Of a stretch of 64,000 nt of DNA, positions 23,765 to 62,635 are shown one piece after another. Made by a program: the position numbers and the translations under genes. The DNA is taken from assembly GCA_021780225.1 (NCBI GenBank), contig JAJXZF010000036.1, positions 34,267-98,266 of the forward strand, in the 5' to 3' direction. The stretch comes from Deltaproteobacteria bacterium (GTDB lineage Bacteria > Desulfobacterota > Binatia > Binatales > Binataceae). The notes beneath the pieces were generated by a model, which had not been told where the DNA came from, made no database searches, and saw nothing but the letters and a program-made list of their open reading frames with translations. Within the stretch, counting starts at the first letter, position 1, and each line of letters opens with the position of its first letter.

Positions 23765-24256
23765 GTGGCGCTCGACACCGCGATCTATCTCGCCGCGATT
23801 TTGATCGTCGCCGCGGTCGCCCTCTTCGTCGCCGCGCCGCTGGTTGAGGGCGTGCGCCCCCGCCGCCGCGCCGGCGCTCCCGAACGCGAGCGGCTGGAGC
23901 ATCAGCGCGCCCTCGCCGTGCAGGGACTGCGCGAACTCGAATTCGACCATGAGATGGGCAAGCTCGATGAGGGCGACTACGCCGCCTTGAAACGCGCGCT
24001 CGAAGAACGCGCGCTGGCCGCGATGGCCGCGCTCGATCGGCTGCGCGCATCGCCGGCCGGCGACGGCGTCGCCCAAAGCGCGCCCGCGCTCGATCCCGGC
24101 GTCGCCCGCCACGGCGCGGTGGGCGTGGCCGATGCGCCGCCAACCTATCCGCATTTCTGTCCGCAATGCGGCGGCCATCTCGACATCGCCGCCGGCCGCT
24201 GTCCCGCGTGCGGCGCCGCGGCGAATGCCGCCGCCAGGCGCGCGGCGGAATCCTGA
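23765..24256 (+). CDS. CcmI-N-terminus-like membrane protein with C-terminal zinc ribbon
   Basis: N-terminal TM, LRELEFDHEMGKLDEGDYAALKR, FCPQCGGHLDIAAGRCPACGA. Confidence 0.75.
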   Translation: MALDTAIYLAAILIVAAVALFVAAPLVEGVRPRRRAGAPERERLEHQRALAVQGLRELEFDHEMGKLDEGDYAALKRALEERALAAMAALDRLRASPAGDGVAQSAPALDPGVARHGAVGVADAPPTYPHFCPQCGGHLDIAAGRCPACGAAANAAARRAAES

Positions 24257-24969
24257 TGGATGCGCCGGCGATCGAGGCGCGCGGGCTGTCGAAGAGCTTC
24301 GGCGCGGCTCCCGTCCTGCGCGGTATCGATCTGGCGATCGCGCCCGGCCGCGCGCTGATGATTATCGGGCGCAACGGCGCCGGCAAATCCACCCTGCTGC
24401 GCCTGCTCGCCGGACTCGGCGCTCCGGATGACGGCGAAGCCCGGCTCTTCGGCGCGCCCAGCCGCAAGCTCGAGGCCGCCGATCGCCGCCGGTTCGGGAT
24501 GCTGACGCATCAGAGTTACCTCTATCCGAACCTGACCGCGCGCGAGAATCTCGAATTCTATTGCGCGCTCTACCGCGTCGCCGATCCGGCCGCCGAAAGC
24601 GGACGCTGGCTCGAACGCGTCGGCCTCGCCCGGTTCGCCGCCGAGCGGGTGCGCGCCTTTTCGCGCGGGATGGAACAGCGGCTGGCGCTCGCCCGCGCGT
24701 TGATCCATCGCCCGGACGCGCTGCTGATGGACGAGCCGTTCGCCGCGCTCGATCCCGACGGCGCCGAACTCGCCGCAACCCTGATTCGCGAGGCGCTCGC
24801 GCGCGGCTGCGCCGTCGCGCTCACCGCCCATCGCGCGTTCGCGCTCGATTCGGCCCGCTGCACAGCGCGCGAGCTCGTGCGCGGCCGGCTGCTCGGCGCG
24901 CCGATCGATACCAGCGTGGCCGATCGCGCCGAATCTTCCCCAACGCATCCCGGCGCCGGAGCGCGCTGA
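24256..24969 (+). CDS. ccmA: Haem exporter ATPase CcmA
   Basis: GRNGAGKSTLLRLLAGL Walker A, FSRGMEQRLALARALIHRPDALLMDEPFAALD. Confidence 0.9.
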   Translation: MDAPAIEARGLSKSFGAAPVLRGIDLAIAPGRALMIIGRNGAGKSTLLRLLAGLGAPDDGEARLFGAPSRKLEAADRRRFGMLTHQSYLYPNLTARENLEFYCALYRVADPAAESGRWLERVGLARFAAERVRAFSRGMEQRLALARALIHRPDALLMDEPFAALDPDGAELAATLIREALARGCAVALTAHRAFALDSARCTARELVRGRLLGAPIDTSVADRAESSPTHPGAGAR

Positions 24970-24976
24970 TCCGCCG

Positions 24977-25651
24977 ATGGCCGGTTTCGTCGCCGTATTG
25001 CGCAAAGACCTCACGCTCGAACTGCGCGGCGGCGAGAGCACGCTCGCGCTGGTCGCGCTTTCGATCCTGATCCTGGTCGTGATGGTCTTCGCGCTGGATC
25101 CGGCCGGCGGCGCCGCCGACGCGCCGATTGCCGCGGGCGCGCTGTGGGTCGCGATGATCTTCGCCGGGATGGCGGGCGCGGCGCGCACCGTGCTCGCGGA
25201 GCGCGACAACGGCTGTCTCCGCGCGCTCTACCTGAGTCCGCTCGATCGCGGCGCGCTGTTTCTCGCCAAACTCGCCGCCGCGTCGATCTTCATGATCGTC
25301 GCCGAGGCGGCGGTGGTCCTGATGCTGGTGCTGTTTTTCAACCTGGATTTCGATTTGCGGCTCGCCCGGATGCTGCCGGCGCTCGCGCTGGGCCTGGTCG
25401 GTTTCGCCGCGCTGGCGACGCTGCTCGCGGCGATCTCCGGCCGCGTCCATGCGGGAGACCTGCTGATGCCGCTGCTCGCCGTGCCGATGTACGTGCCGGC
25501 GTTGATCGCCGGGGTCAAAGCCAGCGCGGCCGCGCTTGGCGGCGCGCAGTGGAGCGCGATGGGCCAGTGGCTGCGTATAATGATCGCGTTCGACGTGCTC
25601 TTCGTCGCCGCCGGCTTTATCCTGTTCGAACATCTGCTGGGTGAGGATTAA
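24977..25651 (+). CDS. ccmB: Haem exporter permease CcmB
   Basis: LRKDLTLELRGGESTLALVALSILILVVMVFAL, MAGAARTVLAERDNGCLRALYLSPLDRGALFLAKL. Confidence 0.9.
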   Translation: MAGFVAVLRKDLTLELRGGESTLALVALSILILVVMVFALDPAGGAADAPIAAGALWVAMIFAGMAGAARTVLAERDNGCLRALYLSPLDRGALFLAKLAAASIFMIVAEAAVVLMLVLFFNLDFDLRLARMLPALALGLVGFAALATLLAAISGRVHAGDLLMPLLAVPMYVPALIAGVKASAAALGGAQWSAMGQWLRIMIAFDVLFVAAGFILFEHLLGED

Positions 25652-25660
25652 TCGCCGCCG

Positions 25661-26368
25661 ATGGCTAACACGTTCATGCGCACGCTCGCCGCGCTCACCG
25701 GCCTGCTGATGTTCGCCGCGATCTACATGACCTTCGCCTTCGTGCCGACCGAAGCGGAGCAGGGAATCGTGCAGCGCATCTTCTATTTTCACGTGCCCTG
25801 CGCGTGGGTCGCCTTCGCCGCGTTCGGCATCGTCGCGATCTCTGGAATCTTCTACCTTTGGCTGGGCGGTCAGATTTGGGACGACCTCGGCTATGCGTGC
25901 GCCGAAATCGGGATGGTCTTCTGCACGCTGGTGCTGATCACCGGCTCGATCTGGGCGCGGCCGATCTGGGGCGTCTGGTGGACCTGGGATTCGCGCCTGA
26001 CCACGACGCTGATCCTGTGGCTGCTGTACGGCGGCTACATAATGCTGCGCGCGATGGCCGGCGATTCGCCGCAGGTCGCGCGGTTCGCCGCCGTGATCGG
26101 AATCGTCGCGGCGGCCGACGTGCCGGTAATCGTCGTCTCGGTCCGGCTCTGGCGGACGATTCATCCCGCGGTGCTGATCACCAAACAGGGCGAGCACGGC
26201 CTGACCGATCCGCGGATGGTCGCGACGCTGCTGGTCGCGCTCGCCGCCTTCACTGCGCTCTTCGCGTGGCTGTTGCTGATTCGTTTCGCGAGCCTGCGCA
26301 CGCGCTCGCGGCTCGCCGCGCTCGAGCGCGAACTCAATCTGGCCGAGGCGGCGGCGGGAGATCTCTGA
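25661..26368 (+). CDS. ccmC: Haem exporter protein CcmC
   Basis: IFYFHVPCAWVAF, WARPIWGVWWTWDSRLTTTLILWLLYGGY. Confidence 0.92.
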   Translation: MANTFMRTLAALTGLLMFAAIYMTFAFVPTEAEQGIVQRIFYFHVPCAWVAFAAFGIVAISGIFYLWLGGQIWDDLGYACAEIGMVFCTLVLITGSIWARPIWGVWWTWDSRLTTTLILWLLYGGYIMLRAMAGDSPQVARFAAVIGIVAAADVPVIVVSVRLWRTIHPAVLITKQGEHGLTDPRMVATLLVALAAFTALFAWLLLIRFASLRTRSRLAALERELNLAEAAAGDL

Positions 26369-26538
26369 TGGAAAATCTTGGCTATCTCGGCGCGGCCTAC
26401 GCGATTATTTTCGGCGTCATTTTTCTTTATGTGATTTTCATCCAGCGCCGGCAGGCGCAACTCGACGAGCGGATGCGCGCGCTGGAGGCGCGGCTGGCCG
26501 AAGTCCGCGACGGTTTGAAGCATCGCTCCGCCGGCTGA
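26368..26538 (+). CDS. ccmD: CcmD-like small membrane protein
   Basis: MENLGYLGAAYAIIFGVIFLYVIFIQRRQAQLDERMRALEARLAEV; single TM, overlaps ccmC stop. Confidence 0.8.
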   Translation: MENLGYLGAAYAIIFGVIFLYVIFIQRRQAQLDERMRALEARLAEVRDGLKHRSAG

Positions 26539-26554
26539 CATTCGCGCGGCGTCA

Positions 26555-26582
26555 CGGCGCTTGCAATAAAGCGCAAGCGCCG
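26555..26582 (+). terminator. Hairpin after the ccm operon
   Basis: CGGCGCTTGC-AATAAAGC-GCAAGCGCCG, perfect 10-bp stem, 17 nt after the ccmD stop. Confidence 0.5.
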
Positions 26583-26629
26583 CACCGCCGGCTGATATTT
26601 CCGCTTCGCTTGTATGAGGTCGGTTCGCA

Positions 26630-26800
26630 TCACGATTGGTGAGCAGGCAATGAATGAAGCTCCGGAAGAGCGTCGTCGCCGCGCCGCGACTGAGGCTTTG
26701 TCCTCGTCAATGAGATTGGCGCCCTCGACCGGCATTCGTGGGCTCGTACGGTATCCCGAGGCACCCGATGTCCTCATATGCACAAGCTTGAGCGGGAAGG
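26630..26800 (+). ncRNA. Candidate IS110 bridge RNA
   Basis: Stem-loop 26659-26671; target loop stem GTCG..GCGCC (26675-26685) / GGCGC..CGAC (26718-26729) holding CAATGAGAT (26708-26716); donor loop closed by GCTC (26742-26745) / GAGC (26790-26793) holding ACGGTAT (26748-26754) and CCTCATA (26772-26778). Exact ends unknown. Confidence 0.65.
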
Positions 26801-26847
26801 TCGGCTCCGAGGTCCGGAAAGATTCGATCACGAGAGGAGGATGAAGC

Positions 26848-28068
26848 GTGAGACGGTTTGCGGGAATTGACGTGGGCGCCGAAGCCCACATGGTTGCGGT
26901 CGTGGACGAAAGCGGCGCATTGCTGCGCAAATCCACGGCCTTCGGCGAAGACGCCGCCGGTTATCGTCGGCTTCGGGAATTGCTGGGAGACCCGGGCGAT
27001 GTTCTGGTCGCGATGGAGGCGACCGGGGTGTACTGGCGGAATCTGTTCGCCTTCCTGGTGGCCGAGGGTTTCAGCGTTGCCCTGGTCAACCCGCTGCGCA
27101 CCAACCGCTTTGCGGAAGAAGAACTTGCGCGTACCAAGACCGATGCGATCGATGCCTTGGGTATTGCCAGATTTGCGGCACAGAAGCGGCCGGCACGCAC
27201 CGAGCTGCCCGACGACGCGACTCAAGATCTGCGCGAGATGGTTCGCCTGCGTATGCGAATTCTCCTTCATCGCGGCGACTGCGTCAGGCGCTTGCATCGC
27301 GCCTTGCGACTGACGTTCCCGGAATTCACGAACCATGTGCGCACTCTGGAGAGCGAACTGGCCACGGTGCTTTTGTCTCGCTATCCAACCGCCCGCGCTT
27401 TTGGAGCCGCCCGCACCAAAGCTGTCGCACGCGTGTGTTTCGACGGCCATCGCCATGTCGGCGAGCGGCTGGCCGCGGCTTTGATTAGCGCCGCTAAAGA
27501 TTCAGTCGGCCGCCATTACTCCGGCCCATACCGACGGGAGATCAAGTACCTGTGCGAGGACATTGCGCTGGCGCGTGAGCGCCTGAGAAACCTCGAGCGC
27601 GATATCGAGAGCATGCTCGACCAGCATGAGGTCGCAAAGTTGCTGACCACCATCGCTGGGATCGGGCGTCAGACGGCGGCGCGCCTGGTGGCCGAGCTCG
27701 GCGATCCGGCTCGTTTCCGCAGCTCTGCAGCCTTGGCCAGCTACGTTGGCGTGATCCCGAGGGTGCGCCAGTCCGGAAAGCGAAAATTCTCCGGCGGACC
27801 GAGAGTTCCGTTGGGCCATGTCCTGCTCCGCCGCGCGCTCTGGATGCCGACCCTGACTGCGGTTCGGATAAACCCTTGGCTGCGTGCTCACTATCAACGT
27901 CTGCTGAGCGCCGGCAAGGCGCCAAAGCGCGCGTTAGTCGCCGCCATGCGTAAGCTGCTCACCGCCATATACAGCGTCGCGAAAAATCGGCGACCTTTCG
28001 TTCTCCAGCTGCCTGGTCCGACTATTTCTCCGCCGCTCGGCGGCGCTGCGGTAAACGATCTGAGTTAA
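26848..28068 (+). CDS. IS110-family transposase (RuvC-like DEDD N-domain, Transposase_20 C-domain)
   Basis: FAGIDVGAEAHMVAVVDE, VAMEATGVYWRNL, ARTKTDAIDALGIARFA, LLTTIAGIGRQTAARLVAELGDPARFRSSAALASYVGVIPRVRQSGKRKFSGG. Confidence 0.95.
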   Translation: MRRFAGIDVGAEAHMVAVVDESGALLRKSTAFGEDAAGYRRLRELLGDPGDVLVAMEATGVYWRNLFAFLVAEGFSVALVNPLRTNRFAEEELARTKTDAIDALGIARFAAQKRPARTELPDDATQDLREMVRLRMRILLHRGDCVRRLHRALRLTFPEFTNHVRTLESELATVLLSRYPTARAFGAARTKAVARVCFDGHRHVGERLAAALISAAKDSVGRHYSGPYRREIKYLCEDIALARERLRNLERDIESMLDQHEVAKLLTTIAGIGRQTAARLVAELGDPARFRSSAALASYVGVIPRVRQSGKRKFSGGPRVPLGHVLLRRALWMPTLTAVRINPWLRAHYQRLLSAGKAPKRALVAAMRKLLTAIYSVAKNRRPFVLQLPGPTISPPLGGAAVNDLS

Positions 28069-28118
28069 CAGAAGAGATGGCTCCGAGAGTTGACCAGGCG
28101 TCACGGTATCTCATTGCT

Positions 28119-28150
28119 GTCATTCTGAGGCGCAGCCGAAGAATCCCGAT
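28119..28150. repeat. REP-like intergenic repeat, family B copy 2
   Basis: TGTCATTCTGAGGCGCAGCCGAAGAATCCCGAT, about 10 bp outside the right IS110 core. Confidence 0.6.
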
Positions 28151-28244
28151 TCTTTCGCGGCGCGGGCGCGTTCCCGATTCGCCGCCATGCAGGAAACTTG
28201 TTGACGAGACCCGACCGCGGCCGGAACCATATGGGCGCGGACGT

Positions 28245-28982
28245 ATGAAACGTTATCGAAGCTCGGGAGCGTTCGGCGCGATCGTCTTTTTGTTCATCGT
28301 CGCCGCGCTGTGGGGAGTCGGCGAACCGGCGCTCGCGCTTGCGCTTTTCGCGCTCGGCGCGATCGTCTTCCTGCAACGCCAGGCGCGCCTGCGCCGCGCG
28401 CGCGACGCCGGCCGCGCCGACGCGATGATCGCCGCGGCGCGCGCGTTTGTCGCCAAAATCGACGCCGACCGCTGTCTGCCGTCGCTGCCGCCGCTCAATC
28501 TTAATCTCGGCGCGGACGAATTTGTCGTGATGCGCGAGGCGCGCTGTCGTGTCTTCGGCTTGCGCGAACCGTGCGGCGCGCCGCCCGACTCGCCCTATCT
28601 GCGATTCGCGGGATTTTCGATTTACGACGACCTCCGGCGATCGTCGCGCGGCGTTCCGCGCCACGTTTCCGCGGCCGGTTCGCTCTGTCTCACCAACCGC
28701 CGTCTGGTCTTCGTCGGCGAACGAGCCAATCTGGAGATCGCGCTGGCCGAAATGCTGGCGATCGAACCCGCGCTCGACTCGTTTCGCGTCGCCGTGGCGG
28801 GAGCGGATAATTCGCGCCGCTTCACGGCGGAAAATCCCTTGCTGTGGGGCCTGATGATCCGCTGGCTGAGCGCGACGCCCGTCGCTGAGCCGGGGCTTCC
28901 CGCCGGCGCCGCGTTGCGGCTGGTCGCGGACGCCGCCGGAATCCGCCGCAACGTCGCGATTTCGCTGACGCTCCCCGAATAG
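28245..28982 (+). CDS. Hypothetical membrane-anchored protein, possible GRAM/PH-like fold
   Basis: Two N-terminal TM segments; AAGSLCLTNRRLVFVGERANLEIALAEMLAIEP resembles a PH/GRAM core. Confidence 0.55.
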   Translation: MKRYRSSGAFGAIVFLFIVAALWGVGEPALALALFALGAIVFLQRQARLRRARDAGRADAMIAAARAFVAKIDADRCLPSLPPLNLNLGADEFVVMREARCRVFGLREPCGAPPDSPYLRFAGFSIYDDLRRSSRGVPRHVSAAGSLCLTNRRLVFVGERANLEIALAEMLAIEPALDSFRVAVAGADNSRRFTAENPLLWGLMIRWLSATPVAEPGLPAGAALRLVADAAGIRRNVAISLTLPE

Positions 28983-29051
28983 TTCGCCGGCGGCGGTTGC
29001 GATACGCGCGCGCGATGCGCATCTTTGAATGCGGAGACTTTTCGCTTATCG

Positions 29052-30158
29052 ATGGAATTCCGCGACTACTACAAGCTGCTCGGCGTCGAACGCGCCGCCT
29101 CCGCCAGCGAAATCAAAAGCGCCTATCGCAAACTCGCCCGCAAGTTCCATCCGGACGTAAATCCCAACAATAAAGAGGCCGAGCGCCGCTTCAAGGAGAT
29201 CAACGAGGCCTATCAGGTCCTCAGCGACGCCGGGAAGCGCAAGAAGTACGACGAGCTCGGAGCGGATTGGGAGCGCGGCGCGTCCGAGGAGGAAGTTTTC
29301 CGGCGTTACGCGCGCGCGGGCGGCGCCGAACACGCGCATCAGGGCGGCGACGAAGCGGGGGGCGGCTTCAGCGACTTCTTCGAGCGCTTCTTCGGCGGGC
29401 TTGGCGCTGGCGGCGGACGTGCACGCGGCTACTCCTTCGGCTTTGGCGACGAGGACGCCATCCATGGACGCCACGGCGGCCGCGCGCCCGATCTTCAGGC
29501 CGAAGTCGAAATTCCGCTCCGCGAGGCGGTGCACGGCAGCGAACGCCGGATCAATCTGGCCGCGACCGACGAATGCGAGAATTGCGGCGGCTCGGGCGTG
29601 ATCGCGCGGCAGGAAAAGCGCGGCAACGCGCGCATCATCCGCTCCGCCGACCAATGTCCGCAATGCGGCGGCGCCGGCGTGGTTCGCGCCTATCGCCAGC
29701 TCGAAGTGAAGATTCCGCCCGGGATGACCGACGGCTCGCGAATCCGGCTCAAAGGGCAGGGCGGCAAGGGCGCCAAACCCGAGCTCAACGGCGACCTGTT
29801 CCTGACGATTCGGCTGAAACCGTCGAACGTCTTCAGCGTCTCAGGCCGCGATCTCCGCTGCCAGCTTCCGGTGTGGGATTATGAGGCCGCGCTGGGCGCC
29901 GAAGTCACCGCGCCGGTCCTCGACGGCAAAATCGCATTGAAGATTCCGGCCGGCAGCCAGAGCGGCCGGGTGATGCGGCTGAAGGGTCGCGGGATTCCCG
30001 GACGCGGCAAGGAAGCCGCCGGCGATCTGCTCTACGAACTCAAAGTGCTTGCTCCCACCGACATGAATTCGGAGGAGCGCCGCTTGATGGAGCAGTTCGC
30101 CGAGCGCCGCCGCTCGCGTGAGGTGCCCGATCCGCGGGCCGACCTGATGCGGGAGTGA
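29052..30158 (+). CDS. dnaJ: DnaJ/CbpA-type co-chaperone with a two-motif zinc-binding region
   Basis: J-domain [67 protein letters not shown] and CPQCGGAG; DnaJ C-terminal [22 protein letters not shown]. Confidence 0.9.
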
Positions 30159-30457
30159 GAGCGATGGCCCGACGACGCACGAATCGCTCAGACCGGTCCG
30201 CCGGCCCGCGCGAAGTTCTCTTGATCAGCCGCACGGCGCTGCTGGTAATGTCGGGCGCGAGCGAGCGCGAACTGGCGGTGTGGGAGCGCGAGGATTTAAT
30301 CGCGCCGGTCGAGTATGTCGACCGCGGCGGCGAGCCGCTTTACGATCGCGAGACGCTGCGCCGCATCCGCGTAATCCGCACCCTGGCCGACGAGCTGGAA
30401 GTCAATCTGCCCGGAATCGGCGTGATTCTGAACCTGCTCGACCAGCTCGGCGGTTGA
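30155..30457 (+). CDS. MerR-type regulator, HspR/CbpM-like
   Basis: [60 protein letters not shown] overlap with dnaJ. Confidence 0.75.
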
Positions 30458-62444: not shown

Positions 62445-62635
62445 AAATCGTGTCCCGCAGGTGAGTTTGCTCGGTGATGACGGATCGGGATTCTTCGCTT
62501 CGCTCAGAATGACAGCAAAGACGCTCCATTATGTAACTCTGAGCATCCCATCATGTCATTCTGAGCGCAGGCTGCCGGAGCGAAGAATCCCGAATCTGTA
62601 AGCCTGTTGATGAATAAAATCGAGAGACAGCACAC
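62445..62635. mobile_element. 191-bp MITE-like element C, TA-flanked, with large internal palindrome
   Basis: TA at 62443-62444 and 62636-62637; right end (rc) GTGTGCTGTCTC vs copy A2 GTGTGCTGTCCC; left end TGTCCCGCAGGTGAGTTT vs A2 TGTCCCGCAAATAACTTC. Confidence 0.6.
62486..62592. repeat. REP-like inverted pair, family B copy 3
   Basis: CGGGATTCTTCG (62486-62497) / CGAAGAATCCCG (62581-62592); GCTCAGAATGACA (62502-62514) / TGTCATTCTGAGC (62554-62566); all arms perfect. Confidence 0.75.

What the first reader, a model, noticed from the sequence alone, without database searches (positions are those of the whole stretch)
26614..28116. IS110 element whose bridge RNA guides can be read from the sequence and define its exact ends
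Seen directly: the non-coding DNA upstream of the transposase contains (i) ACGGTAT (26748-26754), identical to the element's right end plus core (28103-28109); (ii) CCTCATA (26772-26778), the reverse complement of TATGAGG at the left end (26613-26619); (iii) CAATGAGAT (26708-26716), the reverse complement of ATCTCATTG just right of the element (28108-28116). These sit in two predicted loops, target loop first and donor loop second, after a 5' stem-loop. Established: IS110-group elements carry a bridge RNA in the end upstream of the transposase, with LDG, RDG and RTG of these polarities. Inference: core is AT, element is 26614-28107 plus one core, circle junction is ACGGT-AT-GAGG, and the pre-insertion target was CGCTTGT-AT-CTCATTG. 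Weak point: the left target guide matches only partly (GCTTTGT vs GCTTGT).
Basis: partly seen in the sequence, partly recalled or inferred. Interest (0 to 1): 0.75.

Follow-up and report, generated by a model that had tools for sequence, protein, structure and literature searches.

The report
IS110 element with IS621-type bridge RNA
This is a jumping gene of a known kind (IS110 group, like E. coli IS621) that carries a guide RNA choosing where it inserts; the guides can be read from the sequence, but its exact ends and core are CT, not AT as first proposed, so it is a well-documented but ordinary new member of a known family.

Summary
The element is real: an intact IS110 recombinase (26848-28068; DEDD_Tnp_IS110 plus Transposase_20) with a bridge RNA in the left end (26662-26819). 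Eleven relatives give a covarying two-loop RNA, target loop first and donor loop second. The core is CT (26609-26610 and 28110-28111), as in IS621. The element is 26611-28109 plus one CT (1501 bp), with donor junction CACGGTAT-CT-TGTAT (IS621: AACAGTAT-CT-TGTAT). Empty sites of a 90%-identical relative in three congeneric genomes keep CT and lack TGTAT, which rules out an AT core for that near-identical element. Right target guides match their own targets at 33/36 positions (permutation p 4e-5), left target guides at 31/40 (p 1e-5). The 'AT' read as core appears to be the handshake guide beside the RTG. Left unexplained: this copy's own LTG (GCCGCGA-CT) does not match its left flank (1/7). New member of a known kind.

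The parts
26609..26610 (+). left core dinucleotide CT (end of left target, start of right donor)
   Evidence: Empty sites of the 90% relative L011 keep CT and lack TGTAT; same CT-TGTAT in IS621 L160 and in relatives with a visible left end
26611..28109 (+). whole IS element, LE to RE without cores (1499 bp; 1501 with one CT)
26609..26615 (+). right donor CT-TGTAT, bound by the RDG
   Evidence: Identical in IS621 and relatives; pairing scheme as in PMC11208158
26613..26618 (+). -10-like TATGAG, completed only in the circular RE-LE junction
   Evidence: 18 nt from TTGACC in the window junction, 17 nt in most relatives
26662..26819 (+). bridge RNA body (target loop plus donor loop)
   Evidence: Covariance model R1: 152 bits, E 1.2e-31 (window is in the training set); held-out relative L092 129.5 bits; covariation of 35 pairs
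26683..26691 (+). left target guide GCCGCGA-CT (7 nt plus core), by homology
   Evidence: Position defined by relatives whose LTG matches their left flank; in this copy it matches its own flank at only 1 of 7
   Evidence: Helix 2, with changes on both sides
26708..26714 (+). right target guide CAATG-AG, pairs with CT-CATTG at 28110-28116
   Evidence: Perfect; covaries across 9 elements, 33/36, p 4e-5
26715..26716 (+). handshake guide AT next to the RTG, complementary to donor AT at 28108-28109
   Evidence: By homology with IS621 positions 81-82; AGAT conserved in all aligned relatives
26748..26755 (+). left donor guide ACGGTAT-C, same sequence as RE end plus first core base
   Evidence: IS621 has ACAGTAT-C in both places
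26778..26786 (+). right donor guide AT(GC)ACAAG; AT plus ACAAG pair with CT-TGT-AT, GC flipped out
   Evidence: Conserved AT-NN-ACAAG with few exceptions; 9-to-7 discontiguous pairing as in IS621
26787..26788 (+). handshake guide next to the RDG (CT); first base pairs with target base G26608
   Evidence: Position-7 pairing in 10 of 11 elements incl. IS621, permutation p 0.024
26848..28068 (+). IS110 recombinase, 406 aa, GTG start; D8, E57, D99, D102 and S309 present
   Evidence: PF01548 E 3.8e-36 and PF02371 E 1.3e-25; alignment with IS621
28069..28109 (+). right end (RE), ending CACGGTAT = left donor
28090..28095 (+). -35-like TTGACC of the junction promoter
   Evidence: TTGAC[ACG] or similar at this spacing in most relatives; mechanism established for IS621
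28110..28116 (+). right core CT plus right target CATTG

Best explanation
An IS621-type member of the IS110 group. After excision the circle joins RE to LE as CACGGTAT-CT-TGTAT, which completes a promoter and drives a bridge RNA from the left end (inferred from IS621). The donor loop binds the junction (LDG ACGGTAT-C to the bottom strand, RDG AT..ACAAG to the top strand). The target loop binds a chromosomal site (LTG to the bottom strand left of CT, RTG CAATG-AG to the top strand right of CT). The DEDD/serine recombinase then exchanges strands at the CT core. Shown here by computation: family, intact catalytic residues, RNA structure by covariation, guide positions by covariation with flanks, and the CT core by empty sites of a 90% relative. 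Inferred from IS621 biochemistry: expression, RNA binding, activity.
For: PF01548 and PF02371; DEDD and serine residues aligned with IS621; PDB relatives are the IS621 and ISCro4 transposases only. Relatives share GCTTGTAT at the left and CACGGTATCT at the right, with variable DNA outside. IS621 has GC-CT-TGTAT and ACAGTAT-CT. Empty sites L166, L167, L168 read CACCG-CT-CATCTG, CGCCC-CT-CATTTG, CGCCG-CT-CAATTT against filled CGCCG-CT-TGTATGAGG. RTG 33/36 (expected 14.6, p 4e-5) and LTG 31/40 (expected 18.1, p 1e-5) over 9 and 10 elements. RNA covariation 0.319 vs 0.160 shuffled, 0/500; 94.5% of cells paired vs 37-48% when slid. Held-out relative L092 129.5 bits. Junction -35/-10 spacing 17-18 nt across the CT junction. 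Durrant 2024 and Hiraizumi 2024.
Against: In this copy the LTG matches its own left flank at only 1 of 7 positions. Single copy in its genome, so the ends cannot be checked between copies. The window's own empty site was not recovered cleanly. The single-sequence fold is no more stable than shuffles (z 0.7 to 1.3), so the structure rests on covariation. No expression or activity data. No conserved stem-loop 5' of the target loop was recovered.
Confidence: 0.94

Rival explanations
1. One reading: IS110 element with AT core, ends 26614-28107, RDG CCTCATA, left target CGCTTGT read by GCTTTGT.
For: AT is shared by both ends; the three words match exactly in this copy and in part in L011.
Against: Empty sites of the near-identical L011 element lack TTGTAT; GCTTGTAT at the left end is nearly invariant although targets differ; CCTCATA/TATGAGG falls to 1-3 of 7 in eight relatives; GCTTTGT is a hairpin loop; IS621 core is CT.
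Confidence: 0.03
2. An IS110 element whose left-end RNA is a decayed or no longer matching guide: the copy is a passive relic at this site.
For: LTG matches the left flank at 1 of 7; single copy in the genome.
Against: The recombinase ORF is intact with all five catalytic residues; RNA stems, LDG, RDG and RTG are intact; the RTG still matches perfectly.
Confidence: 0.15
3. Ordinary IS with a structured leader (attenuator) upstream of the transposase; guide matches coincidental.
For: The structure lies directly upstream of the CDS.
Against: Guide-flank matching is pair-specific across elements (p 4e-5 and 1e-5).
Confidence: 0.01

Closest known systems
IS621 (IS110 group, E. coli; bridge RNA, Durrant 2024 / Hiraizumi 2024)
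   Same: DEDD plus serine recombinase, LE-encoded two-loop RNA, CT core, donor AACAGTAT-CT-TGTAT against CACGGTAT-CT-TGTAT, RDG with AU-NN-xCAAG pairing 9 nt to 7, junction promoter
   Different: 33% protein identity; about 80 aa longer, mostly in the region of the coiled coil; RTG match of 7 nt including core rather than 4; apical stems differ; the model built here does not report IS621 at E<=1
ISCro4 transposase (PDB 9t56)
   Same: Best PDB sequence match, E 6.9e-35
   Different: 341 aa; the best-matching stretch is the C-terminal domain; RNA not compared here
IS1111 group (seekRNA; RNA in the right end, long subterminal inverted repeats)
   Same: Same recombinase superfamily and RNA-guided principle (PMC11187229)
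   Different: Here the long non-coding end and the RNA are on the left, the RE is 41 bp; long subterminal inverted repeats were not specifically searched for

Membership tests
IS110 group (IS621-like) | DEDD RuvC-like domain PF01548 plus PF02371 with conserved serine | tested here: met
IS110 group (IS621-like) | Long LE, short RE, bridge RNA in LE upstream of the CDS | tested here: met
   LE 237 bp, RE 41 bp; model hit 26662-26819
IS110 group (IS621-like) | Two internal loops, target loop then donor loop, supported by covariation | tested here: met
IS110 group (IS621-like) | Stem-loop 5' of the target loop | tested here: inconclusive
   Upstream part of LE not alignable across relatives; no conserved helix found
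IS110 group (IS621-like) | Target guides match target, covarying across elements | tested here: met
   RTG and LTG in the subfamily; the window's own LTG is the exception
IS110 group (IS621-like) | Donor guides match RE-core-LE junction | tested here: met
   LDG ACGGTAT-C, RDG AT-NN-ACAAG
IS110 group (IS621-like) | Core dinucleotide CT shared by target and donor, scarless empty site | tested here: met
   Empty sites for the L011 element; inconclusive for the window's own site
IS110 group (IS621-like) | Circle junction reconstitutes a sigma-70-like promoter | tested here: met
   Sequence only: TTGACC-18-TATGAG here, TTGAC[AGC]-17-TAT in most relatives; not shown to be active
IS110 group (IS621-like) | RNA expressed, bound by recombinase, directs recombination | not testable with these tools
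   needs experiment
IS1111 group | Bridge/seekRNA in the right end | tested here: not met
   RE is 41 bp; RNA is in LE

The most novel reading that the evidence does not exclude
The target loop of this copy was changed after or during insertion: its RTG and handshake base fit the present site but its LTG (GCCGCGA) does not. The element may therefore be caught between targets, or this subfamily may tolerate loss of left-target pairing when right-target pairing is extended to 7 nt.
Probability: 0.15. Interest if true: 0.5.

Novelty: new member of a known kind. Interest (0 to 1): 0.33.

Why it matters
It adds a coherent subfamily of about a dozen elements in several phyla (33% identical to IS621 at the protein level) in which all guides, the CT core and the ends can be read and checked from sequence alone, including a 7-nt RTG. 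This is useful as orthologue material for bridge recombinases. It also shows how guides read from one sequence can be mis-registered by a few bases, and how relatives and empty sites correct that. It does not change the understanding of the mechanism.

Tried and rejected
Rfam gathering search of the window: no hit. Other copies in the same genome: none. Empty site of the window's own insertion via CcmC neighbours: the congener G004 aligns on the left to about 18 bp from the element and has CTCATCCGTCATACCGAGGCGC, resembling the right flank CTCATTGCTGTCATTCTGAGGCGC, but the alignment does not separate the CT and AT readings (55.5 vs 54.0). Right end of the L011 element in G003: the matching right-hand sequence lies on another contig, its first 46 nt do not match, and another IS110-like hit lies nearby, so the end was not seen. 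Second empty sites for L120 and L121: homology stops before the insertion. Single-sequence folding gives no signal above shuffles. An 8-nt genome pattern search was uninformative. Viral contigs hold only distant relatives.

Full report
What is there. The ORF 26848-28068 (406 aa, GTG start) matches DEDD_Tnp_IS110 (E 3.8e-36) and Transposase_20 (E 1.3e-25). Aligned with IS621 it keeps the four acidic residues (D8, E57, D99, D102) and the serine (S309). Its only solved relatives by sequence are the ISCro4 and IS621 transposases. It is a single copy in its genome. Relatives of 50-90% identity were found in the same family of bacteria, in Burkholderiales, and on plasmids of Sandaracinus and Azospirillum.

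The quoted words are real. All three matches sit at the stated coordinates, and two of them are far above chance. The question is what they are, and relatives answer it.

Ends and core. Relatives with a visible left end read (G/T)CTTGTAT with unrelated DNA further left, and nearly all right ends read CACGGTATCT with unrelated DNA further right. The E. coli IS621 element reads GC-CT-TGTATTA on the left and AACAGTAT-CT-ACG on the right, and its core is CT. The 90% relative L011 in the same genus has orthologous unoccupied sites in three genomes, one of them the window's own. These read GCACCG-CT-CATCTG, GCGCCC-CT-CATTTG and GCGCCG-CT-CAATTT, where the filled site reads GCGCCG-CT-TGTATGAGG. TGTAT is therefore element DNA and CT is the core of that element. 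The window element, with identical terminal sequence, is then 26611-28109 plus one CT, 1501 bp. The window's own empty site was not recovered cleanly, so for this copy the CT core rests on homology.

Bridge RNA. Eleven left ends align over 182 columns. The consensus has a target loop (stem CGCCG/UGGCG, apical hairpin GAGG/CCUC) followed by a donor loop (stem CCCUCG-CCGG.../...CCGGCUCCGAGG, inner stem GAGGC/GUCCUC). On the named structure 94.5% of cells pair, against 37-48% when partners are slid by 1-3 columns. Thirteen pairs change on both sides, and the covariation score is 0.319 against 0.160 in shuffles, reached by 0 of 500. The structure was derived from the same alignment, so part of this contrast is built in. 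A covariance model built from these finds the held-out L092 at 129.5 bits, and finds the donor-loop motif in the left ends of much more distant elements (L063, L069). In the family genomes it finds no convincing copies away from these recombinases; one weak hit (L211, 36.6 bits) was not followed. A single-sequence fold alone shows nothing above shuffles.

Target guides. Taking the nucleotides before AGAT as RTG and the nucleotides before the apical hairpin as LTG, and CT as core, RTGs complement their own right flanks at 33 of 36 positions (permuted mean 14.6, p 4e-5; 9 elements). LTGs match their own left flanks at 31 of 40 (permuted mean 18.1, p 1e-5; 10 elements). The guide positions were chosen by eye from the alignment before the test, and the elements are related, so the p values are approximate. 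Examples: L153 RTG ...CCAT-AG with target CT-ATGG and LTG GCCCGTT with left target GCCCGTT; L152 GACTG-AG with CT-CAGTC; L009 LTG GGCGGG with GGCGGG. For the window, RTG CAATG-AG matches CT-CATTG perfectly.

Donor guides. LDG ACGGTAT-C (26748-26755) equals the RE end; IS621 has ACAGTAT-C in both places. RDG is AT-GC-ACAAG (26778-26786). AT and ACAAG pair with CT-TGT-AT while GC is left out, the 9-to-7 discontiguous pairing reported for IS621. That is the likely reason why a 9-nt complementarity spans the right junction and why AT looked like the core. The handshake base next to the RDG pairs with the target base before CT in 10 of 11 elements (p 0.024).

Promoter. Joining RE to LE through CT places TTGAC[AGC] 17 nt (window 18 nt) from TAT(G/C) in most relatives, the layout described for IS621. 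In the linear window no promoter-like site is found there, as expected if only the circle is transcribed. Activity is inferred.

What does not fit. The window's LTG (GCCGCGA) matches its left flank (CGCTTCG) at 1 of 7, the only zero in the four core-proximal positions among ten elements. Either the insertion used a poor left match, or the guide or the flank changed later. The congener G004 does not decide this.

Verdict. New member of a known kind.

Noticed in passing
window 28117-28149: Right flank begins a dispersed ~32-bp repeat (CTGTCATTCTGAGGCGCAGCCGAAGAATCCCGA) with about a dozen partial or full copies in the genome, one at about 62484-62521 of this window.
   Followed up: partly
window 26547-26590: Imperfect 18-bp inverted repeat just left of the element, downstream of ccmC; part of it recurs at 98% on contig C109.
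   Followed up: no
L119, L120, L121, L092 (genomes G030, G034): Related, partly decayed elements have a longer left end with a perfect 19-bp inverted repeat in L121 (ACATTTTTTCCTCGGCCTC / GAGGCCGAGGAAAAAATGT), and similar ones in the others, between the terminus and the bridge RNA, which puts the RNA more than 200 nt from the junction promoter.
   Followed up: partly
L010 recombinase: Third acidic residue of DEDD is replaced (TKTG instead of TKTD), so that copy is probably inactive.
   Followed up: no
L185 (G003 contig C25): The right-hand continuation of the L011 insertion locus is preceded by unrelated sequence with another IS110-like hit nearby.
   Followed up: no
window 24166-30454: The element sits between a cytochrome c maturation cluster (ABC transporter ATPase, CcmB, CcmC-like) and an unassigned gene followed by DnaJ-type and MerR-type genes; in one relative (L126) the DnaJ-type gene follows the ccm genes directly.
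   Followed up: partly
G025 C117:17469-17625 (L211): Weak bridge-RNA model hit (36.6 bits) on a contig other than that of the G025 element found with the recombinase; could be a solo or decayed RNA.
   Followed up: no
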